Positions 2,958-33,229 of a DNA stretch of 34,966 nt are shown piece after piece. Within the stretch, counting starts at the first letter, position 1, and each line of letters begins with the position of its first letter. Made by a program: the position numbers and the translations under genes. This DNA comes from Fimbriimonas sp. Lineage in GTDB: Bacteria; Armatimonadota; Fimbriimonadia; Fimbriimonadales; Fimbriimonadaceae. The notes beneath the pieces were generated by a model, which was given only the letters and a program-made list of their open reading frames with translations, made no database searches and was not told where the DNA came from. The stretch covers positions 1-34,966 of the forward strand of contig JARXAE010000011.1 in assembly GCA_029866005.1 (NCBI GenBank), read 5' to 3'.

Positions 2958-3845
2958 GTGCTCGCAACATTCTTGCAACTCATTCGAATCCGGCAGTGGA
3001 CAAAGAACATCTTTGTCCTCGCCGCATTCGTTTTTACGCGTGGGTGGGAGGAAGCCGCCGATATCCGTGCGATCACGTTAGCGCTCATCGCAATGTGTCT
3101 CATTTCGTCTGCGACTTATGTGGTCAACGATATCGTTGACCATCAGAAAGATCAACAACACCCGAAGAAGAAGCACCGCCCGATTGCCTCCGGAAAGATC
3201 AAAATCAACCAAGCCGTCGGTATCGCCCTGATTCTCTTTGTTCTAGGTCTGGCCTCAGCAGTTATCTCCAGACCGGAAACGTTACTTGTACTCGCCGCTT
3301 ACTTGGCAATTCAAGTCGCTTACAACTTTGGCCTCCGGAATCAAGCTGTGATTGACGTCGGCTGTATTGCAGCGGGGTTTGTAATCCGCGTGATTTTGGG
3401 AGCCGTTGCGATCAACGCTCAAGTCTCCGGATGGATTCTCCTTTGCACCGCCACCGTCGCCCTCATGATCGGTTTCGGAAAGCGCCGTCACGAGTTCATG
3501 CTCAAGAGTCAGCTGGGTGGCGAAACCCGGCGCAGCCTCTCGGATTACACCCAGCAGTCGCTCGACGTTCTTGTTGCAATGTCAGCCACCTGCGCGGCGA
3601 TGAGTTACAGCGTTTACAGTATTGAGAGTCCAACCGCGCAAATATATCCAGCTCTGATCCTGACAACACCATGGGTGTTGTTTGGTATTTGCCGCTATGT
3701 CATCTTGGTCTTTGGTGTTGGCGAAACCGGCGAGCCAGAGTCCCTTGTGCTCGGAGATAAGCAACTTTTGATTGTGTTCGCAGGCTACACATTAAGTGCC
3801 ATCCTCGCCCTGAAGAGGCTGCCTCTTCCGTTTCTCATCCAATGA
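2958..3845 (+). CDS. ubiA: UbiA-family prenyltransferase, decaprenyl-phosphate phosphoribosyltransferase-like
   Basis: Integral membrane prenyltransferase of about 295 residues, close to the roughly 300 of mycobacterial DPPR synthase. That enzyme transfers 5-phosphoribose from PRPP to polyprenyl phosphate, the first step towards polyprenyl-phosphoryl-arabinose. Visible marks are the opening LIRIRQWTKNIFVLAAFVF, the first Asp-rich motif NDIVD (from residue 57) followed by HPKKKHRPIASGKI, and the second region YNFGLRNQAVIDVGCIAAGF. Hydrophobic segments run through the remainder. The frame is open from GTG 2766. GTG 2958 is preferred because the family begins right before the RxxQWxKN segment and because the length then fits. 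The stop overlaps the next start by 4 bp (ATGA), so it is translationally coupled to the reductase. Without its neighbours it could only be called a generic UbiA protein; the operon makes the DPPR role likely. Confidence 0.85.
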   Translation: MLATFLQLIRIRQWTKNIFVLAAFVFTRGWEEAADIRAITLALIAMCLISSATYVVNDIVDHQKDQQHPKKKHRPIASGKIKINQAVGIALILFVLGLASAVISRPETLLVLAAYLAIQVAYNFGLRNQAVIDVGCIAAGFVIRVILGAVAINAQVSGWILLCTATVALMIGFGKRRHEFMLKSQLGGETRRSLSDYTQQSLDVLVAMSATCAAMSYSVYSIESPTAQIYPALILTTPWVLFGICRYVILVFGVGETGEPESLVLGDKQLLIVFAGYTLSAILALKRLPLPFLIQ

Positions 3846-4555
3846 AATACCAAACTGCAATCGTCGTCGGAGCTTCATCCGGAATGGGGCGCGAGCTCGT
3901 CCGCCAACTTGCTGCCTCGGGCACCAAAGTCGCCGCCATCGCTCGCCGAGAAGAACGCCTGCAAGAGCTTGTCAACGAATTTCCAGGATTGGTGACGCCA
4001 ATCGTCCACGACGTCACGGACCATGACGCAATCCCTGAACTGTTCCAAACCATCACTCGCGATCTAAGGGGTCTTGACCTCTTTATTTACAACAGCGGAG
4101 CGATGCCCATCGTCGAAGTGAAAGAGTTCACCTGGGAGAAAGATAAGCAGATGCTGGACGTCAACATTTCTGGAGCCGTCGCTTGGTGCAACCAGGCCGC
4201 CGACCGATTCCTCCATACCAACCACGGCTATCTCGTTGGTATCGGGTCGGTTGCCGGAGATCGGGGGCGACACAAGCAACCCGTCTACAACGCATCCAAA
4301 GCCTTCTTTCACACCTATCTCGAAGCCCTCCGAAACCGGGGAGTCTGTGTCAGCACCATCAAGCCCGGCCCCGTCGATACCGAGATGACCGCTCCTCTCA
4401 ACATGAAAGGGATGATGTCTGCCGAGCAAGCTGCGACGATCATTCTGAGCAAAGCCGATAAGAACGGCGAGCACTATTTGAAGCTTGCCCACCGAATCGC
4501 TTTCTACATCATCAAGCGAGTCCCCAGCCCCATCTTCCGAAAGCTCAAGATATGA
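3842..4555 (+). CDS. dprE2: Short-chain dehydrogenase/reductase, probable decaprenylphosphoryl-2-keto-D-erythro-pentose reductase (DprE2-like)
   Basis: Cytosolic NAD(P)H-dependent SDR of 237 residues. The glycine-rich cofactor motif GASSGMG is at residues 10-16, NSGA at 84-87 (the NNAG position), the catalytic Ser136 in IGSVAG, and Tyr149-x3-Lys153 in YNASK. In the DprE1/DprE2 epimerase pair, this enzyme reduces the 2-keto sugar lipid made by the oxidase to the arabinose epimer. SDR sequence alone does not fix the substrate. The assignment rests on its position between a UbiA prenyltransferase and a DprE1-like oxidase, with 4-bp ATGA overlaps on both sides. At 237 residues it is slightly shorter than mycobacterial DprE2 (about 254). 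Confidence 0.8.
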   Translation: MKYQTAIVVGASSGMGRELVRQLAASGTKVAAIARREERLQELVNEFPGLVTPIVHDVTDHDAIPELFQTITRDLRGLDLFIYNSGAMPIVEVKEFTWEKDKQMLDVNISGAVAWCNQAADRFLHTNHGYLVGIGSVAGDRGRHKQPVYNASKAFFHTYLEALRNRGVCVSTIKPGPVDTEMTAPLNMKGMMSAEQAATIILSKADKNGEHYLKLAHRIAFYIIKRVPSPIFRKLKI

Positions 4556-5943
4556 TTTCAACCCAGCGCATCGCCCGCGTTGCGGGATACGGAATGACCC
4601 AGGCGGCAGACGCCTATGTTTATCGCCCAACCTGTGTCGAAGAGATCAATAAGATCTTCGACGAGGCGAGAACAGCGGGTCGAAAAGTCACCCTGCGCGG
4701 AGCCGGCCGAAGCTATGGTGATGGCAACATTGGCTCGGAAACCTTGCTGATTGACATCACCCGGATGAACCGAATTCTCTCCTGGGATGCAAGCACCGGC
4801 ATCATCGACTGCCAAAGTGGAGTCACCATTGAGAACCTCTGGCGATTCTGCTTGGAAGACGGATATTGGCCGCCAGTCGTCACCGGAACCATGTACCCAA
4901 CCCTCGGCGGCGCTCTTGGTATGAACGTTCATGGCAAGAACAACTACTGTCAAGGCACGATGGGCGAGCACGTCATTGACATGGACGTGCTGTTTCCCAA
5001 CGGTGAACTCAAAACTCTGACCAAAGACGATGATCTGTTTTACGCAGTGATCTCCTCCGCCGGACTCCTCGGCGTCATCACCCGCGTGAAGCTCCAAATG
5101 CACCACGTCGCGAGCGGAAATGTAGACGTCTGGGCAGAAGCGGCCCAGAACTGGGATGAGCAGTTCGCCCTCTTCGAGAAGTACGAGCACAACTCCGACT
5201 ACATGGTCTCTTGGGTCGATTGCTTCGCAAAGGGCGCAAAAGCTGGTCGGGGGCAGTTCCACGGCGCTTGGTACAAAGATCGCGAAGATCTCGCCAGCCG
5301 CGTCGCCGAGAAGCAAGACCTTCCAGCGTTGATCCTTGGCTTTTTCCCTAAATCACTTGTCTGGAAGGTACTCAAGCTCGTCTGCAACCGCCCAGGAATG
5401 CGATTCCTGAACGCCGCCAAACAGTTCGCAAGCAGCACCATCGGCAATAACAAAATGCACGACCAAAGCCTAGTCGCATTCTCCTTCCTCCTCGACTATG
5501 TCCCAGATTGGCGCAAAGCCTACGAGCCCGGCGGGTTCATTCAGTACCAAACGTTCATTCCCAAGGAGCACGCCAAAGCCGTCTTCGCTGAGCAGGTCCG
5601 CCTCCAGCAAGAGTACAAACTCGAGTCCTTCCTCGGAGTCCTGAAGCGGCACCGGCCCGACAAATTCTTATTCTCCCATGCCGTCGACGGCTACTCGATG
5701 GCCCTCGACTTCAAAGTCACTGCGAAGAATAGAGTGAGGCTGTGGGAACTAGCCCATAAGATGAACGATCTCACCCTCAAGCACAGCGGTCGCTTCTACT
5801 TTGCCAAGGATTCCACCCTCAGGCCAGAGGACGCTGCGGAGTATTTGGGTGAAGGGCTCCCCAAGTTCCGTAAGCTGAAAAGCAAGCTCGACCCTGAGGG
5901 CTTACTTGTGAGTGATCTGGGACGACGACTAAAACTTTCCTGA
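4552..5943 (+). CDS. dprE1: FAD-dependent oxidoreductase, decaprenylphosphoryl-beta-D-ribose 2'-oxidase-like (DprE1)
   Basis: 463 residues, almost exactly the 461 of mycobacterial DprE1. It would oxidise the 2'-hydroxyl of polyprenyl-phosphoryl-ribose, the first half of the epimerisation to arabinose. The N-terminal FAD-binding domain (VAO/PCMH fold) has RGAGRSYGDGN (about residues 49-59) and GTMYPTLGGA followed by NVHGKNNY (about 112-132), both closely resembling DprE1. The C-terminal part carries LKRHRPDKF, then GYSMALDF, then YFAKDS, whose Lys matches the catalytic Lys418 of the mycobacterial enzyme. It ends DLGRRLKLS, like the mycobacterial MARRLELL. The residue at the benzothiazinone-reactive Cys387 position is Ala here (codon 5701-5703). 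It is the last gene of the operon. A generic sugar/alditol oxidase is the alternative, but the length, C-terminus and neighbours favour DprE1. Confidence 0.88.
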   Translation: MISTQRIARVAGYGMTQAADAYVYRPTCVEEINKIFDEARTAGRKVTLRGAGRSYGDGNIGSETLLIDITRMNRILSWDASTGIIDCQSGVTIENLWRFCLEDGYWPPVVTGTMYPTLGGALGMNVHGKNNYCQGTMGEHVIDMDVLFPNGELKTLTKDDDLFYAVISSAGLLGVITRVKLQMHHVASGNVDVWAEAAQNWDEQFALFEKYEHNSDYMVSWVDCFAKGAKAGRGQFHGAWYKDREDLASRVAEKQDLPALILGFFPKSLVWKVLKLVCNRPGMRFLNAAKQFASSTIGNNKMHDQSLVAFSFLLDYVPDWRKAYEPGGFIQYQTFIPKEHAKAVFAEQVRLQQEYKLESFLGVLKRHRPDKFLFSHAVDGYSMALDFKVTAKNRVRLWELAHKMNDLTLKHSGRFYFAKDSTLRPEDAAEYLGEGLPKFRKLKSKLDPEGLLVSDLGRRLKLS

Positions 5944-5984: not shown

Positions 5985-8888
5985 ATGGGTCGTTCTGCAT
6001 CATCCATCCTCCTTCTCGCCGCCATGGCGGTTGCCTTCGGTCAAGCCCCAATCAAAGATTGGGATAAGAAAGCCGAGCGAGAGAAGTTCCATCCGACCAT
6101 AGTACGAGGAACCCCGGCAGCCGAGAGGGAAGCCTCTTACCAAAAGCGTCTGCAGCTCGAAAAGGAATCCTTCCTCATGGGTTACCTCTGGAAGAACGTC
6201 GGCCCAGAACCACAGAGCGGGCGAGTCATGATGATCACCGCTCCAGAGAACAATCCGAACCAAGTCTATGCCGCCTTCGCCACCGGTGGTCTCTTCCGCA
6301 CCGAGGACGACGGGCAAACCTGGCAAAGCCTTTGGGATAACCAACCGAGCTTTGGCATCGGAGACTTTGCCATCAGCAAGGACGGCAAAACCATTTATCT
6401 GGGAACCGGCGAAGCCAATAACCAGCGCACCAGTTACTCCGGAACCGGAATGTACAAATCGACAGACTCCGGCAAAACCTGGACCTTCGTCGGTCTGCCC
6501 GAGAGTCATCACATCGGCCGAATCGTGATGGATCCCAAAGACGAAAACACCGTCTGGGTCGCAGTGACGGGACACCTCTACTCTCAAAATCCTGAGCGGG
6601 GAATCTACAAAACCAGCGATGGTGGAAAGACCTGGAAGCAGGTGCTGAAAAAAGACGAGTTCACCGGCGCGATCGACATCCAACTCGATCCTAAGAACCC
6701 CAAAGTCGCCATCGCCGCCATGTATCAGCGCGACCGCCGAGCATGGAACTTTCTCGAAGCCGGTCCTGGCAGCGGTGTCTTCCGAACCGAGGATGGTGGC
6801 AACACCTGGACGCCAGTGAACACCCTCCCCAGCGGCGATTCCTGCGGACGAGTTGGTCTCGCCTGGGCGAAGAGCGACAATAAAGTCGTTTACGCCTTCG
6901 TAGAGAACCCTGGCAAAAACCAAACGTGGGAAGAAGAAGATGAGCGGGTTCGCAGCGGAGTCCTCACCCCCCGTCGGTTCCTGAAGCTCGACGCTAAGAT
7001 GTTCCAGGAGATCGACAAGGCGGTTCTCGAACCGTTCTGGAAGCAATATGCTCCCGCCGACAGCAAACTAGACGACATTCTGGCCGGCCTGAAAGACGGC
7101 AAGATGACGATGGCCGATGTCAAAGCCAAGATCGAAGTCAAGAGCCCGAACGCGTTTGATCCCGGCCAATACGACGACGAACTCTATAAGTCCACCGACG
7201 GCGGAAAGACTTTTGCCAAGATCACGAAGTTTGGCGTGGTTGGTGGTTACTATTACGAGCGGGTCTTCGTCAACCCGAAGAACGCCGATGATGTCTGGCT
7301 ATGTGGCGTACCAATGCTTCGCTCCCTCGATGGCGGCAAGAACTTCAAAGATGCAGTCACGAGAGATGTCCACGTTGACCATCACGCTGTCTACTTCGAC
7401 CCCCGCAACCCCAATCATGTTTGGGTCGGTAACGATGGCGGAATCTACCTGAGCCGCAACGACGGAAAGAACTGGTTCCACTTCGAGAATCTCAGCGTTG
7501 GTCAAACCACAACTGTAGCAGTCGACAACAAGACTCCCTATAACATCTACACTGGTCTCCAAGATAACGGCACGATGAAGGGTCCAAGTGATTTCATTCT
7601 GGGAGTCACTAGCCCGACCAAGTGGGAAGACATCGGAGGCGGCGACGGCTCAGCCATCGCCATCGACCCTCGTCCTGAGTTCGATCTCGTCTATGGTGCG
7701 AGCCAGTTTGGCTCCCACTACGCCATCGACTTCAAAACAAATCAGCGCTACTCTGCACGTCCCCGAGGCGCCACTGGCGAAGCCCAGCGGGCGAACTGGA
7801 TATCTCCAATCCAGCTTTCCACTTTCAACGCTGATATCGTCTACATCGGCTTCAATAAGCTTTACCGCTCGTTTGACCGGGGCCGAACCTTTAAGCCCAT
7901 CTCGCCAGATCTGACTCGGAACCGACCCAATGGAGACGTCCCGCACTCAACGATAAAGGAGCTCAGCGAAAGCCCTCTCAAGTTCGGCCTCATCTATTGC
8001 GGAGCGGACGACGGACGGGTCACGATGACCCCAGACGGAGGCAATACCTGGACCGAAATCCCCACCCCCCAACCCGAGAAGTGGGTCTCCCGAATCGTTG
8101 CCAGCCGGCACGAGGAAAACGTCGTCTACTGCAGCCAAAGCGGCTACCGAGAAGATGACTGGTCGGCTTACCTTTGGAAGTCCACCGACCAAGGCAAAAC
8201 CTGGAAGTCCATCGTTGGCAATCTTCCCCACGAAACGATCAACGTCGTTCGCGAAGACCCCAAGAACAAAGATATCCTGTACGTCGGAACTGACCTTGGC
8301 GTCTACGTCACCTTCGACGGTGGCACAACATGGGAAGTCCTCGGCGGGGCTCTCGGACACCTCCCGGTTCACGACATGGTGATCCAAGAGCGGGAGTATG
8401 ACCTCGTCGTCGCAACTCACGCCCGAGGTTGCTTTGTCCTTCCTCTAAAGCCCGTGCTCGCCGTCACTAAGGAGCAACGTGCCGCCGACCTCATAATTAG
8501 CTCCCTCAGCGACATGTCCCGAAGCGTCCTCTGGGGCTACGAGCGCCGCGCACCCTACACCACCGAGGCACCATCGATCCCTACCCTCAAGTGCTCGTTC
8601 TTCTCGAAAGCCAGCGGAGCGGGAACAGTTGAGCTGGTAGACAAGGATGGCAAGGTTGTCCTGAAACGAGACCAGACCATCATGCGCGGACTCAATAACA
8701 CAGCACTCGAGCTGAGACTCACAAAGGAAGGAATCATCGTCGGACCTCCTCCGGCTCCAAAGGACGCCAAAGAAGCCGTAAAAGACCCGTTCGAGTCCAA
8801 GCGAGCCACCTTCGTCCCGGTTGGTACCTACAAGCTGAGAATCACGGTAGGCGGCAAGTCAGTCGAGAAAGACTGGAAACTGGACTGA
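5985..8888 (+). CDS. Large secreted BNR/sortilin (VPS10)-type beta-propeller protein
   Basis: 967 residues with an N-terminal signal peptide (MGRSASSILLLAAMAVAFGQA), so exported. The body contains at least eight Asp-box/BNR motifs of the S/T-x-D-G-G-x-T-W type: EDDGQTW, TDSGKTW, SDGGKTW, EDGGNTW, TDGGKTF, PDGGNTW, TDQGKTW and FDGGTTW. They are spaced over residues about 105-790, as in two stacked ten-bladed or similar propellers. A 150-residue helical insert rich in Lys and Asp separates the first and second groups (about residues 310-395). The C-terminal 120 residues look like a beta-sandwich. Such WD40/YVTN/BNR-like glycosyl-hydrolase-annotated proteins are common in Armatimonadota, Acidobacteria and Bacteroidetes; their substrates are mostly unknown, and no sialidase catalytic set is evident. 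It starts 41 nt after dprE1 on the same strand and may be separately transcribed. Confidence 0.85.
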   Translation: MGRSASSILLLAAMAVAFGQAPIKDWDKKAEREKFHPTIVRGTPAAEREASYQKRLQLEKESFLMGYLWKNVGPEPQSGRVMMITAPENNPNQVYAAFATGGLFRTEDDGQTWQSLWDNQPSFGIGDFAISKDGKTIYLGTGEANNQRTSYSGTGMYKSTDSGKTWTFVGLPESHHIGRIVMDPKDENTVWVAVTGHLYSQNPERGIYKTSDGGKTWKQVLKKDEFTGAIDIQLDPKNPKVAIAAMYQRDRRAWNFLEAGPGSGVFRTEDGGNTWTPVNTLPSGDSCGRVGLAWAKSDNKVVYAFVENPGKNQTWEEEDERVRSGVLTPRRFLKLDAKMFQEIDKAVLEPFWKQYAPADSKLDDILAGLKDGKMTMADVKAKIEVKSPNAFDPGQYDDELYKSTDGGKTFAKITKFGVVGGYYYERVFVNPKNADDVWLCGVPMLRSLDGGKNFKDAVTRDVHVDHHAVYFDPRNPNHVWVGNDGGIYLSRNDGKNWFHFENLSVGQTTTVAVDNKTPYNIYTGLQDNGTMKGPSDFILGVTSPTKWEDIGGGDGSAIAIDPRPEFDLVYGASQFGSHYAIDFKTNQRYSARPRGATGEAQRANWISPIQLSTFNADIVYIGFNKLYRSFDRGRTFKPISPDLTRNRPNGDVPHSTIKELSESPLKFGLIYCGADDGRVTMTPDGGNTWTEIPTPQPEKWVSRIVASRHEENVVYCSQSGYREDDWSAYLWKSTDQGKTWKSIVGNLPHETINVVREDPKNKDILYVGTDLGVYVTFDGGTTWEVLGGALGHLPVHDMVIQEREYDLVVATHARGCFVLPLKPVLAVTKEQRAADLIISSLSDMSRSVLWGYERRAPYTTEAPSIPTLKCSFFSKASGAGTVELVDKDGKVVLKRDQTIMRGLNNTALELRLTKEGIIVGPPPAPKDAKEAVKDPFESKRATFVPVGTYKLRITVGGKSVEKDWKLD

Positions 8889-10364: not shown

Positions 10365-13007
10365 TTACTGTCCGCGTTTAAGCTCGGCTTCAAGCTCCTT
10401 CTTCAGCTCGACCAACTCAGATGGAGCCATGCGGGTCCAGCAGTCTCGGCCGTGCTTGTGTCCGGATTCGAACTTGAAGGGCATTCCCATCAGCAGGTCC
10501 ATCAGCGATGGAGCTGGAGCTGAGCCTGCTCCCTTCGAGTACGTGTCGGCGAGGATCTTCTTCACATCGCTGAGACTCTCGTTTAGGTGAGCCTTCGTCA
10601 CCTTGTCCGAAGTCCGGCTCTGCGCCGAAACCATGTCGTTAGCGACTCCGCGCAGGGCTTCCTTCAACAACGGTCGAAGGTCAGTCTGGCTCGCGCCAGC
10701 TCCATTGATTCGCCCGTCAACCATCTTCAGGAAGTTGCGCTGAAGGTTTCGATCAAACGCGGTGGTCGAGACCTTTGCATTCTTGAGACCATCAAAGATT
10801 CCGCTGACCACATCATCAACCAAGTTGGAAGGCGTGTAAGCCTGCCCTGGCTTGGTCGCCTCAAAGTCAGCGAGCGAAGAAACCTTCGCATCTGAAAGCA
10901 GGCTTCGCAGAACTGCAGAACTCATGGAGTTCAGGCCATTCACAAAACCGGTCATTCGAGTCTTCGCAAAGATCTTTGGATCAAAGATCGCCGACGAAGG
11001 TCGCACTGCTCGGCTCATCAGAAGCTGAACAGCCTTGCGCTGCTGAGCCGCCGGAACCGGATTGAAGACATCGCCTCCCCGCCCCACGTGGTTGTCCAAT
11101 TCAACAACTCCACCAACGACACGCACAACGTGCATCACTTCGGTCATCCACTGACCGATCAGTTCGCCGTGCATCTCGGCAAGATTGTCATATGACTCGC
11201 CGAATTTTGATGTCGCGGGGACAAGTACGTTCTTGGCGATGTACTCCAGGTTGTTCATACCGAGCCGAGTTGCCTCGACCGGGTCGTTCGAAATGATTTC
11301 GGACTGCTTTCGTGGGTCGAGCGAAGCGTTCTTGTAGTTGCCAAATCGCAACCAAGAGTTCGCCACTTGCTGACCAAGGTGCGAATCCAAAGCCGACTTC
11401 TCCTGCTCCGGCGTCACCGCGTTGAGCGTTTTGTAGCCGTACTGGATCGCAAAGGTGTCATAGTCGCCAATCACACCAATCGTTGAAGTGACTCCATCAC
11501 CCGGCTGGGCAACGTAGTTGTATCGCGAGTAGCTCATGATCGAAGAAGCAACTCCGTGCTTGTCGGTGAAGTTCTTATCTCGAAGCTGCGCAATCGTGTA
11601 GGCCGCCGACCCGTTAAAGTTGTGCTCCAAGCCCAACGTATGCCCCACTTCGTGGCAGACAACGTACTGGATCAATCGCCCAATCAGCTCTTCGCTCATT
11701 GGCAACTTCTGAGCCTTCGGGTCAGTTGCACCAACTTGCGCGAAGTACCAGTTCTGGACGAGTTTGACGATGTCGTTCCAGACGATGATGTGCGCGGAAA
11801 TCGACTCTCCGCTGCGAGGGTCCTGAATGGAAGGTCCCATCGCATTCGCAGTGTCGCTTGGAGCCCATCGAATAACGCTGTACCGCGCATCCTCTGGATC
11901 GAAATCTGGATCTTCTTCTTTGGTCGGAGCCATCTTGCCGATGACCGCATTCTTGAAACCAGCGGTCTCGAATGCTGGCTGCCAGTCATTGATTCCCTGA
12001 ATCACATACTTGCGCCACTTTTCAGGAACTTCCTGGGTTACGTAGTAGGTGATTGGCTTCTTCGGCTCGCTGACATCCGCCTTCGGATCCTGCTTTTCAA
12101 GTCGGAATCGGTTGATGTACTGAACCTCTTTCGCCGCGTTGCCTTCCGCACCAAATAGCGTGAAATCAGTGGTGAAGTATCCAATTCGCGAATCCTTCAG
12201 TCGGCCCATCATGGGAACTTCGGGCAGCTCGGTCAAGCTGTAATGTACGACCGTAGCCGCCTTGCTCGCGTCATAGTTTCCGCCGCCGCCGCCAAGCAGA
12301 GCCTGAATTCCTCCGCCCTGAGCGCGCCCCATCAAGAACGTCATGTAAGTCCGCGTTTCAATATTTGTTGGGAATGCCTTGACCTTCTCGATCCAGGTCT
12401 TGCTGGAATCAACTCCCATTGCACCAGGGATCGCAGCGCGAACGCTGAAGTCCTGAGGATCACTGATGAATAGCTGGGTCACGTCGATCAGCGGATTCTT
12501 CTCTGGAGATTCGCCAACGATGTCGAAGGTGAACAAAATCGGCTCGATCGAGTTCTGCTTCACTCCCAAATCGACGCCCTTGTCTCCACCTGCCGATCGG
12601 GTGCTGACATCGACATTCTTGAGCTGAATCTTCTTGTCTCGTCGAGCAAACTTGACCGTTCTTGGGCGCTGCATTGGTGCAGTTCCCGGATAGGTCAAAG
12701 CGCGAGGTGCTTCAGAAACTTCTGCGTTGATGAGGAACAGTCGTCCAAGCTTTGATTCGGGAATTTCCCAGTAGACCTTATCCTCAACTTTGTGAACCTT
12801 GAAGACGCCGTCCTGCGACTTGGCGGTTTTCATCAGTTCGTCGTATTTCTTTTGCTCAGCGGTTCGCTTATCTTCCGCTTTGGGAGGCTCGGGCTTCTTC
12901 TCGTCTTGCGTTGCAGGCGGAGTGGTAGCCGGGGGAGGAGTTTGGGCGAGGGTGGTTCCCGCGACCATGGTTAGCCCGAGGGCGATGAGGAATGCGCGCT
13001 TCATCAT
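10365..13007 (-). CDS. Secreted zinc-dependent metalloprotease (DUF5117/DUF5118-type, metzincin motif)
   Basis: 880 residues. Signal peptide MMKRAFLIALGLTMVAGTTLAQ is followed by a Pro/Thr/Lys-rich stretch to about residue 50. The catalytic motif HEVGHTLGLEHN (near residue 450) is a metzincin-like HExxHxxGxxH zinc site, and SIMSYSRYNY about 35 residues later is a plausible Met-turn. The upstream DUF5117/DUF5118-like region and the C-terminal helical region match a family of large secreted metalloproteases found in Bacteroidetes, Armatimonadota and related groups, whose substrates are not established. There are two adjacent Met codons (13007 and 13004), either of which may start. It is divergent from hom with 104 bp between starts, and ends at a strong hairpin. 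Likely exported to the periplasm or beyond. Confidence 0.88.
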   Translation of the reverse strand: MMKRAFLIALGLTMVAGTTLAQTPPPATTPPATQDEKKPEPPKAEDKRTAEQKKYDELMKTAKSQDGVFKVHKVEDKVYWEIPESKLGRLFLINAEVSEAPRALTYPGTAPMQRPRTVKFARRDKKIQLKNVDVSTRSAGGDKGVDLGVKQNSIEPILFTFDIVGESPEKNPLIDVTQLFISDPQDFSVRAAIPGAMGVDSSKTWIEKVKAFPTNIETRTYMTFLMGRAQGGGIQALLGGGGGNYDASKAATVVHYSLTELPEVPMMGRLKDSRIGYFTTDFTLFGAEGNAAKEVQYINRFRLEKQDPKADVSEPKKPITYYVTQEVPEKWRKYVIQGINDWQPAFETAGFKNAVIGKMAPTKEEDPDFDPEDARYSVIRWAPSDTANAMGPSIQDPRSGESISAHIIVWNDIVKLVQNWYFAQVGATDPKAQKLPMSEELIGRLIQYVVCHEVGHTLGLEHNFNGSAAYTIAQLRDKNFTDKHGVASSIMSYSRYNYVAQPGDGVTSTIGVIGDYDTFAIQYGYKTLNAVTPEQEKSALDSHLGQQVANSWLRFGNYKNASLDPRKQSEIISNDPVEATRLGMNNLEYIAKNVLVPATSKFGESYDNLAEMHGELIGQWMTEVMHVVRVVGGVVELDNHVGRGGDVFNPVPAAQQRKAVQLLMSRAVRPSSAIFDPKIFAKTRMTGFVNGLNSMSSAVLRSLLSDAKVSSLADFEATKPGQAYTPSNLVDDVVSGIFDGLKNAKVSTTAFDRNLQRNFLKMVDGRINGAGASQTDLRPLLKEALRGVANDMVSAQSRTSDKVTKAHLNESLSDVKKILADTYSKGAGSAPAPSLMDLLMGMPFKFESGHKHGRDCWTRMAPSELVELKKELEAELKRGQ

Positions 13008-32407: not shown

Positions 32408-32497
32408 GGACTCGTTTTTTTGCTTGAGATCGGACTGGAGGACAGTGGAAGTGCACCCCTTGGCACACATCTTGACCCTCACTGAATGCTAGACGTG

Positions 32498-33229
32498 ATG
32501 AAGATGAACAAAATTAAGGGACTAGTTTTAGGAATCGCAGTGGTGAGCATGAGTGCGAGCGCACTTGCCCGGCCAGAGCTTAACGCATTTATCAATAAGC
32601 CGGCAAATACAATCCCTGAGCTCATCGCGCAGATCAAGACTGATCGACAAGTCGCCGACCGCTTTATGCGGCACTTTTCGATGGGTCGTGACGAGGTAAT
32701 AGAATTCGTAAGTAGACTTCGCCTTGGGACGATCCCTAAGTCTTCGTACTTCACAATTTATTCTGCGCCTGAGAACGGAGTGCTGAAGTCGCACGTTTCA
32801 TTCTTCAAGAAGGGCACCCCCGCATTCGTCGACGCCGAAGGAAATCCTATTCTGAGGGTCAAGTGCGGTAACCCGTTTGTTGGCGGTCCTGTTCGAGCCT
32901 ACGCTACAAATGACCCTGGTGTCGAAGATGTTGCCGCCGAAAAGGTCGGTGGAGAAGTGGAACTTGGCATGGTCGCGGCGGCGGCCCCTGTCGATCCAAC
33001 GGTCTATACAATGACCACTCCTACGGTCACGATTCCCTCGATTCCCATCAGCACCAACACGGTTCCAAGCGTTAACAGTAGAGGAAACGTATTCGGTGCT
33101 GTAGTTGGAATGGGTATGGCGGCGTCTTTCGTTCAAACGGGAAACACCCAGGTTGTAGTCCCTGAGCCGGCAACCATGGCTGTCCTTGGACTTGGCGCGG
33201 CTGCTCTTCTCCGAAGACGCAAGAAGTAA
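32498..33229 (+). CDS. PEP-CTERM sorting-domain exported protein
   Basis: 243 residues from ATG 32498 (an in-frame ATG at 32486 is the alternative). Signal peptide: MKMNKIKGLVLGIAVVSMSASALA. The C-terminus VPEPATMAVLGLGAAALLRRRKK is a clear PEP-CTERM signal (PEP motif, hydrophobic helix, basic tail), cut by an exosortase in producing organisms. Between them, residues 25-140 form an unrecognised domain (NAFINKPANTIPELIAQIK, FMRHFSMGRDEVIEFV, then a beta-rich part), and a Thr/Pro/Ser-rich linker (about 160-205) leads to the anchor. The first domain's function is unknown. It stands alone, in the 78-nt gap after rnc; an AATGCT hexamer 7 nt before the chosen ATG is a possible -10. Confidence 0.88.
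   Translation: MKMNKIKGLVLGIAVVSMSASALARPELNAFINKPANTIPELIAQIKTDRQVADRFMRHFSMGRDEVIEFVSRLRLGTIPKSSYFTIYSAPENGVLKSHVSFFKKGTPAFVDAEGNPILRVKCGNPFVGGPVRAYATNDPGVEDVAAEKVGGEVELGMVAAAAPVDPTVYTMTTPTVTIPSIPISTNTVPSVNSRGNVFGAVVGMGMAASFVQTGNTQVVVPEPATMAVLGLGAAALLRRRKK

What the first reader, a model, noticed from the sequence alone, without database searches (positions are those of the whole stretch)
2958..5943. Polyprenyl-phosphoryl-D-arabinose donor operon outside the Actinobacteria
A UbiA prenyltransferase, an SDR and a DprE1-like oxidase follow in the order of the pathway, with 4-bp overlaps at both joints. In mycobacteria these three activities make decaprenyl-phosphoryl-arabinose for arabinan. 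Here they sit in a diderm, non-actinobacterial-looking genome, without the phosphatase or arabinosyltransferases beside them. Similar gene sets are known for arabinosylated pilin and Nod factors in some Proteobacteria. The acceptor in this organism is unknown: a D-arabinose-bearing envelope glycan or glycoprotein would be new.
Basis: partly seen in the sequence, partly recalled or inferred. Interest (0 to 1): 0.65.

Follow-up and report, generated by a model that had tools for sequence, protein, structure and literature searches.

The report
Arabinose-donor genes in Fimbriimonas
A soil and water bacterium far from the tuberculosis group carries the same three-enzyme route that mycobacteria use to make their activated cell-wall arabinose, and related genomes suggest that an unusual fused phosphatase-flippase and a secreted-sugar (exosortase) locus belong to it, although the sugar-coated product itself has not been seen.

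Summary
The three genes are real: UbiA 2958-3845, SDR 3842-4555 and a DprE1-like oxidase 4552-5943, with ATGA overlaps at both joints. The UbiA passes NCBI's threshold for decaprenyl-phosphate phosphoribosyltransferase and keeps the catalytic residues. The oxidase is nearest to DprE1 by far, in a sister clade to the mycobacterial one. The SDR is DprE2-like by context more than by score. The organism is Fimbriimonas-like (Armatimonadota). The set is not a local oddity: the DPPR-synthase UbiA is in 229 of 237 genomes of the phylum and the oxidase in 122. Window-type oxidases also occur in at least seven other phyla, mostly with the SDR directly upstream. In a sister family the order is HAD phosphatase, UbiA, GtrA flippase, in one run. 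In this genome HAD and GtrA are fused into one protein elsewhere, between mltG and aroE. A near-universal GT-C lies beside UbiA in one relative and near it in two others. In 26 of 53 relatives with an exosortase, UbiA lies within 30 kb of it. Most likely this is a polyprenyl-phosphate D-arabinofuranose pathway decorating an exosortase-linked surface polysaccharide or protein. The donor pathway is well supported; the acceptor is inferred.

The parts
2958..3845 (+). UbiA-fold polyprenyl-phosphate phosphoribosyltransferase (DPPR synthase / Rv3806c family), step 1: PRPP + polyprenyl-P -> polyprenyl-P-ribose-5-P
   Evidence: NF008977 237 bits over cut-off 234; Rv3806c structure 8j8j E=7.4e-43; NDxxDxxxD, K71 and R74 invariant among 12 relatives, matching N73/D74/D77/D81, K87 and R90 of Rv3806c by the alignment. 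Start codon inferred.
3842..4555 (+). classical SDR, DprE2-like ketoreductase (step 4: 2-keto intermediate -> arabinofuranose)
   Evidence: PF00106; PRK07102 139 bits, DprE2 85 bits, both below cut-off; GASSGMG and YNASK motifs read directly; directly upstream of the oxidase in at least 64 of 80 loci from many phyla.
4552..5943 (+). FAD oxidase, DprE1-like (step 3: polyprenyl-P-ribose -> 2-keto intermediate)
   Evidence: NF053785 298 bits (cut-off 500), next family 73 bits; M. smegmatis DprE1 E=6.6e-57; HGKN and YxAKD (Lys418 equivalent) conserved, Cys387 equivalent is Ala.
3842..3845 (+). ATGA overlap UbiA/SDR
   Evidence: sequence
4552..4555 (+). ATGA overlap SDR/oxidase
   Evidence: sequence

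Best explanation
The operon makes a polyprenyl-phosphate-linked D-arabinofuranose donor. [quoted passage not shown] (2) The 5'-phosphate is removed, most likely by the HAD (YqeG-type) half of a HAD-GtrA fusion protein encoded elsewhere (G000:C32:34953-36035). (3, 4) The oxidase and the SDR invert C2 through a 2-keto intermediate, giving polyprenyl-P-arabinofuranose. (5) The GtrA half of the same fusion carries, or helps carry, the lipid-sugar across the inner membrane. (6) A GT-C enzyme transfers the pentofuranose to a surface acceptor; the best candidate is the conserved PMT-like protein at G000:C22:33384-34766. The acceptor is most likely a polysaccharide or PEP-CTERM glycoprotein made through the exosortase/EPS locus (in this genome at G000:C11:57.7 kb). 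Shown here by sequence: the family identity of steps 1 and 3, and operon conservation. Supported by context: steps 2, 4 and 5. Inferred: step 6, the sugar's identity and the acceptor.
For: Profile and structure-sequence matches, catalytic residues. SDR+oxidase pairing across phyla, and recurrent joining with UbiA in a different order (SDR-E1-UbiA in Chthonomonadaceae). Family f5: MltG-HAD-UbiA in 7 of 7 genomes, followed by GtrA and AroE where the contig continues. Family f1, the window's own: HAD-GtrA fused in at least 32 of 37 genomes, between MltG and AroE in the window genome. Exosortase (PF09721) within 30 kb of UbiA in 26 of 53 genomes that have one (coordinates), against about 1 expected for a 3-Mb genome; in families f2-f4 they share one Wza-Wzc-sugar transferase-UbiA-GtrA-exosortase-EpsI run. 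GT-C ortholog in 57 of 61 genomes, in one run with UbiA-SDR in G005 (L083), and near UbiA in G038 (L065) and G084 (L122). In Ignavibacteria the SDR-oxidase pair faces UbiA and GT-C-like genes, one with weak AftB similarity.
Against: No D-arabinose has been measured. The oxidase and SDR fall below the NCBI equivalog cut-offs for DprE1 and DprE2. YqeG belongs to a family that also contains lipid (PGP) phosphatases (PF09419 match), and yqeG lies in one operon with the shikimate dehydrogenase gene aroD in Bacillus subtilis (PMC5080769), so its place beside aroE may be older than any link to UbiA. GtrA's flippase role is itself disputed (PMC7389260). In the window's own genome the operon is not near the exosortase. 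The GT-C is linked to UbiA in only three lineages and three other GT-C proteins exist in the genome. Several close relatives (G004, G005, G008, G013, G019) lack a detectable exosortase but keep the operon genes.
Confidence: 0.72

Rival explanations
1. The donor is made as described, but it is used for something other than an exosortase-linked glycan: LPS/O-antigen side chains, pilin, or a small glycolipid.
For: Known D-arabinofuranose systems in Proteobacteria serve pilin and O-antigens (PMC11127046). In this genome the operon is not beside the exosortase. In other classes UbiA neighbours include heptose-synthesis-like genes (L122, L127, read by eye).
Against: In four families UbiA is next to or near the exosortase/EPS locus far above chance.
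Confidence: 0.35
2. The HAD-GtrA fusion is not part of this pathway. The HAD half is the cell's phosphatidylglycerophosphate phosphatase or another 5'-phosphatase, and GtrA serves another lipid-sugar.
For: PF09419 PGP phosphatase match and TIGR01668 YqeG; one YqeG per genome also where it is not next to UbiA; B. subtilis YqeG is a weak 5'-nucleotidase in an operon with aroD.
Against: HAD-UbiA-GtrA run in family f5; stand-alone GtrA next to UbiA in f2-f5; fusion of exactly these two partners in f1. HAD phosphatase-UbiA fusions do this step in Citrobacter (PMC11127046).
Confidence: 0.4
3. The oxidase and SDR act on a different polyprenyl-phosphate sugar or a free alcohol, and the UbiA alone makes a ribofuranose donor.
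For: Families f2-f4 keep UbiA, GtrA and exosortase but lack the oxidase; sub-cut-off scores.
Against: Nearest family by more than 200 bits is DprE1, catalytic Lys and HGKN kept; recurrent pairing with the DPPR-synthase UbiA in two gene orders.
Confidence: 0.12
4. UbiA is a quinone or haem prenyltransferase and the oxidase a lactone/alditol oxidase; the operon is unrelated to arabinose.
For: Shared superfamilies only.
Against: Score gaps of 190 and 225 bits; two other UbiA proteins are available for those roles elsewhere in the genome.
Confidence: 0.02

Closest known systems
Mycobacterial decaprenyl-phosphoryl-arabinose pathway (Rv3806c, Rv3807c, DprE1 Rv3790, DprE2 Rv3791, Rv3789)
   Same: Homologous step-1 UbiA, DprE1-like oxidase, SDR; a GtrA protein linked to UbiA in sister families; same catalytic residues.
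   Different: Oxidase is 31% identical and in a sister clade; Cys387 is Ala; gene order SDR-oxidase, not oxidase-SDR; no Emb or AftB-like transferase found; candidate phosphatase is a HAD fused to GtrA; no arabinogalactan expected.
Three-component pentofuranose systems (Citrobacter youngae ORF12-15, GT136; Pseudomonas PA7 pilin arabinosylation)
   Same: PRPP-dependent UbiA, HAD-type phosphatase, flippase, optional epimerase (DprE1/E2 for arabinofuranose), periplasmic GT-C.
   Different: There HAD is fused to UbiA and the flippase is MATE; here HAD is fused to GtrA and the genes are scattered in the window's genome; acceptor unknown; exosortase linkage in relatives.
Exosortase / PEP-CTERM EPS loci
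   Same: Exosortase, EpsI (DUF3485), Wza, Wzc and sugar-transferase genes around UbiA-GtrA in sister families; PEP-CTERM protein in this window at 32486-33229.
   Different: Member loci with a DPPR synthase inside were not found described in the papers searched.

Membership tests
DPPR synthase (Rv3806c type) | Equivalog profile score | tested here: met
   237 bits vs 234
DPPR synthase (Rv3806c type) | NDxxDxxxD Mg/PRPP motif and Lys/Arg cluster (R22, K87, R90, K143 of Rv3806c) | tested here: met
   N57 D58 D61 D65, K71, R74 invariant; R10 nearly invariant; K143 position is Arg
DPPR synthase (Rv3806c type) | Makes polyprenyl-P-ribose-5-P from PRPP | not testable with these tools
   needs enzyme assay
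DprE1 | Curated equivalog cut-off (500 bits) | tested here: not met
   298 bits, though best by 225 bits; treated as DprE1-like, not filed as DprE1
DprE1 | Catalytic/FAD-site residues (Tyr60, His132, Lys134, Lys418) | tested here: met
   conserved in alignments
DprE1 | Phylogenetic placement with DprE1 rather than lactone/alditol oxidases | tested here: inconclusive
   Profile scores clear; tree shows a clade sister to mycobacterial-type DprE1, but lactone oxidases were not in the tree
DprE2 | Curated equivalog cut-off (250 bits) | tested here: not met
   85 bits; top family PRK07102, which also tops the SDR beside a 488-bit DprE1 in L137
DprE2 | Genetic pairing with DprE1 | tested here: met
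   64 of 80 loci, at least
Three-component pentofuranose system | Phosphatase for the 5'-phosphate | tested here: inconclusive
   HAD (YqeG) directly upstream of UbiA in f5, fused to GtrA in f1
Three-component pentofuranose system | Flippase | tested here: inconclusive
   GtrA adjacent to UbiA in f2-f5, fused to HAD in f1
Three-component pentofuranose system | GT-C transferase | tested here: inconclusive
   conserved PMT-like GT-C, linked to UbiA in three lineages
Mycobacterial arabinan (Emb/Aft) system | Emb arabinosyltransferases (PF04602) | tested here: not met
   0 of 21 genomes, positive control C. glutamicum

The most novel reading that the evidence does not exclude
Across a whole phylum of diderm bacteria, polyprenyl-phosphate pentofuranose (arabinose where the oxidase is kept, ribose or another pentose where it is not) decorates the exosortase-dependent surface polysaccharide or its PEP-CTERM glycoproteins, with a fused phosphatase-flippase (HAD-GtrA) coupling dephosphorylation of the lipid-sugar to its export.
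Probability: 0.3. Interest if true: 0.68.

Novelty: new variant of a known kind. Interest (0 to 1): 0.52.

Why it matters
D-arabinofuranose donors are a validated tuberculosis drug target and are usually treated as an actinobacterial speciality with a few Proteobacterial exceptions. Here the first enzyme is near-universal in Armatimonadota, and a distinct oxidase clade runs through at least eight phyla, so pentofuranose donors look like a general feature of some diderm envelopes. The HAD-UbiA-GtrA run and the HAD-GtrA fusion give a testable answer to which proteins dephosphorylate and move the lipid-sugar. The exosortase linkage gives a testable place to look for the product: PEP-CTERM proteins and their EPS.

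Tried and rejected
Quinone/haem UbiA and lactone/alditol oxidase: rejected by score gaps. A phosphatase or GT-C inside the window or within about 8 kb of the operon in relatives: hydropathy and Pfam of neighbours gave none. Emb and AftB-like transferases: not found in own genome. DUF3352 and MscS neighbours of the oxidase in f5 were judged incidental. The profile name NF008977 was not accepted by the genome search. Neighbours of UbiA in other classes (LysRS, a putative aldehyde-forming reductase, RNase Y) looked incidental. The HAD after the oxidase in an Anaerolineales locus (L206) is HisB/GmhB-like, not YqeG, so it was not counted as the same enzyme. No structure was predicted: sequence evidence for UbiA and the oxidase was already clear, and the outside proteins of interest were not clearly among those allowed for prediction. 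Literature for Armatimonadota envelope arabinose: nothing relevant found.
Full report
OBSERVATION. The three frames exist as described: UbiA 2958-3845, SDR 3842-4555, FAD oxidase 4552-5943, with ATGA overlaps at both joints. The gene upstream (534-2705) had no Pfam match; the gene downstream (5985-8888) is a Sortilin/BNR beta-propeller protein. Both are conserved beside the operon only in the closest relatives, so they are probably incidental.

IDENTITY. UbiA: 237 bits to NCBIfam decaprenyl-phosphate phosphoribosyltransferase, above its cut-off of 234, against 47 bits or less for haem O and quinone types. The best solved structure is Rv3806c, 7.4e-43. The aligned motif NDxxDxxxD...HPxKxxRPIASG keeps Rv3806c's metal and PRPP residues including K87 and R90 (residues from PMC10994848, and PMC11127046). 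Two other UbiA genes in the genome are available for haem and quinone. Oxidase: DprE1 profile 298 bits (cut-off 500), next family 73; M. smegmatis DprE1 6.6e-57. His132-Lys134 (HGKN) and Lys418 (YxAKD) equivalents are kept; the benzothiazinone-target Cys387 is Ala. SDR: PRK07102 139 bits, DprE2 85 bits. The SDRs beside two mycobacterial-type oxidases (L137, where the oxidase scores 488 bits to DprE1, and L050) have the same two families on top, so the SDR is the DprE2-like partner by family and context, though not by cut-off.

ORGANISM AND SPREAD. The window is contig 30 of a 2.81-Mb, 97%-complete genome; named relatives are Fimbriimonas and Fimbriimonadaceae, Armatimonadota. The DPPR-synthase UbiA is found in 59 of 61 close genomes and 229 of 237 in the phylum at E<=1e-20, nearly always one copy. 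The oxidase is in 122 of 237 at E<=1e-30: nearly all of family f1, all of f5, several other families, none of f2-f4. A scan of named genomes returned relatives at 45-52% identity in Ignavibacteriota, Bacteroidota, Chlorobiota, Chloroflexota, Sumerlaeota, Myxococcota and Acidobacteriota. The SDR is directly upstream in at least 64 of 80 loci and UbiA within 6 kb in 30. In the tree the window type forms one clade (99) apart from a clade holding M. smegmatis DprE1 and a second, oxidase-then-SDR type present in some Fimbriimonadaceae and one other Armatimonadota family. The M. smegmatis branch is long, so the deep placement is tentative.

MISSING PARTS. In family f5 all seven genomes read MltG, HAD phosphatase, UbiA, and then GtrA and AroE where the contig continues. 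In the window's family f1 UbiA has left this place and the gene between MltG and AroE is a single HAD-GtrA fusion, in this genome at G000:C32:34953-36035 with 4-bp overlaps to both neighbours. At least 32 of 37 f1 genomes have the fusion in one match. The HAD half is YqeG (TIGR01668 105 bits over cut-off 89) and the GtrA half PF04138. B. subtilis YqeG is a weak 5'-nucleotidase and its operon contains aroD (PMC5080769), so the AroE neighbourhood alone is not evidence; the UbiA in between and the fusion to GtrA are. GtrA proteins such as Rv3789 are proposed flippases or recruiters in mycobacterial arabinosylation (PMC7389260). My reading: phosphatase and flippase of this pathway, probability about 0.55.

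TRANSFERASE. No Emb and no AftB-like protein in this genome. A PMT-like GT-C, G000:C22:33384-34766, is found in 57 of 61 genomes. In G005 (same genus) it forms one run GT-C, 700-aa protein, UbiA, SDR (L083). In G038 it lies about 6.5 kb from UbiA beyond the exosortase genes, and in G084, another class, about 6.5 kb upstream of UbiA. Its usual neighbours are housekeeping genes, so this is a candidate only; three other PMT_2 proteins exist. In Ignavibacteria and Bacteroidota loci (L165, L179, L186) SDR-oxidase faces UbiA and two to four GT-C-like genes; one has weak similarity to the AftB profile (9.5e-5).

ACCEPTOR. In families f2-f4 UbiA-GtrA sits inside a Wza, Wzc, sugar-transferase, exosortase, EpsI run. 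In f1, UbiA is within 30 kb of the exosortase in 12 genomes, touching in three. In all, 26 of 53 genomes with an exosortase show this, counted by hand from the coordinates; a random gene would be within 30 kb in about 2% of 3-Mb genomes. Family f2 shares one inherited arrangement, so the count is not of independent events. In this genome the exosortase lies on another contig in a glycan cluster with several GT4-like genes, and the window itself encodes a PEP-CTERM protein at 32486-33229. Several close relatives (G004, G005, G008, G013, G019) keep the pathway without a detected exosortase, so the link is not strict.

MECHANISM, SHOWN VERSUS INFERRED. Shown by sequence: enzyme families of steps 1 and 3, operon conservation, catalytic residues. 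Supported by context: SDR as reductase, HAD as phosphatase, GtrA as flippase. Inferred: D-arabinofuranose as product, GT-C identity, exosortase-linked acceptor. Families f2-f4 lacking the oxidase probably use polyprenyl-P-ribose itself or an epimer of it; in most f2 genomes examined an extended-SDR epimerase gene directly precedes UbiA, recalling Citrobacter ORF13 (PMC11127046), but I did not test that homology.

COMPARISON AND NOVELTY. It works like the mycobacterial DPA pathway and like the three-component pentofuranose systems of PMC11127046, where arabinofuranose systems carry DprE1/E2. It is a variant: a sister oxidase clade, SDR-first order, HAD-GtrA fusion instead of HAD-UbiA fusion, scattered genes, exosortase linkage in relatives.

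Noticed in passing
L050, L051, L053 (f1 genomes G023, G026, G022) and L137 (G159): A second, mycobacterial-type dprE module (oxidase then SDR, about 38.7% identity to M. smegmatis DprE1 versus 30% to the window) replaces the window type in some Fimbriimonadaceae; in those genomes UbiA lies elsewhere.
   Followed up: partly
G133 and G134 (genus g42, family f1): Two 1.5-Mb genomes rated 97% complete lack both the UbiA and the oxidase, in a family where nearly all others have both; possibly reduced or host-associated.
   Followed up: no
window 4552-5943: The residue at the benzothiazinone-target Cys387 position is Ala in the window and in 93 of 124 oxidases read; Cys only in M. smegmatis. Most of this clade would not be expected to react covalently with that drug class.
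   Followed up: partly
window 32486-33229: PEP-CTERM protein (PF07589), a likely exosortase substrate.
   Followed up: partly
window 10365-13007 (-): Large secreted met-zincin (DUF4953/DUF5117/DUF5118).
   Followed up: no
L165, L179, L186 (Ignavibacteriota/Bacteroidota): SDR-DprE1 pair facing UbiA and two to four GT-C-like genes, one with weak AftB similarity: a compact candidate arabinosylation locus and perhaps the best experimental model.
   Followed up: partly
L064-L075 (family f2-f4): DPPR synthase and GtrA inside an exosortase/EPS locus in genomes without DprE1, often with an epimerase gene directly upstream: possible ribo- or xylofuranose donor.
   Followed up: partly
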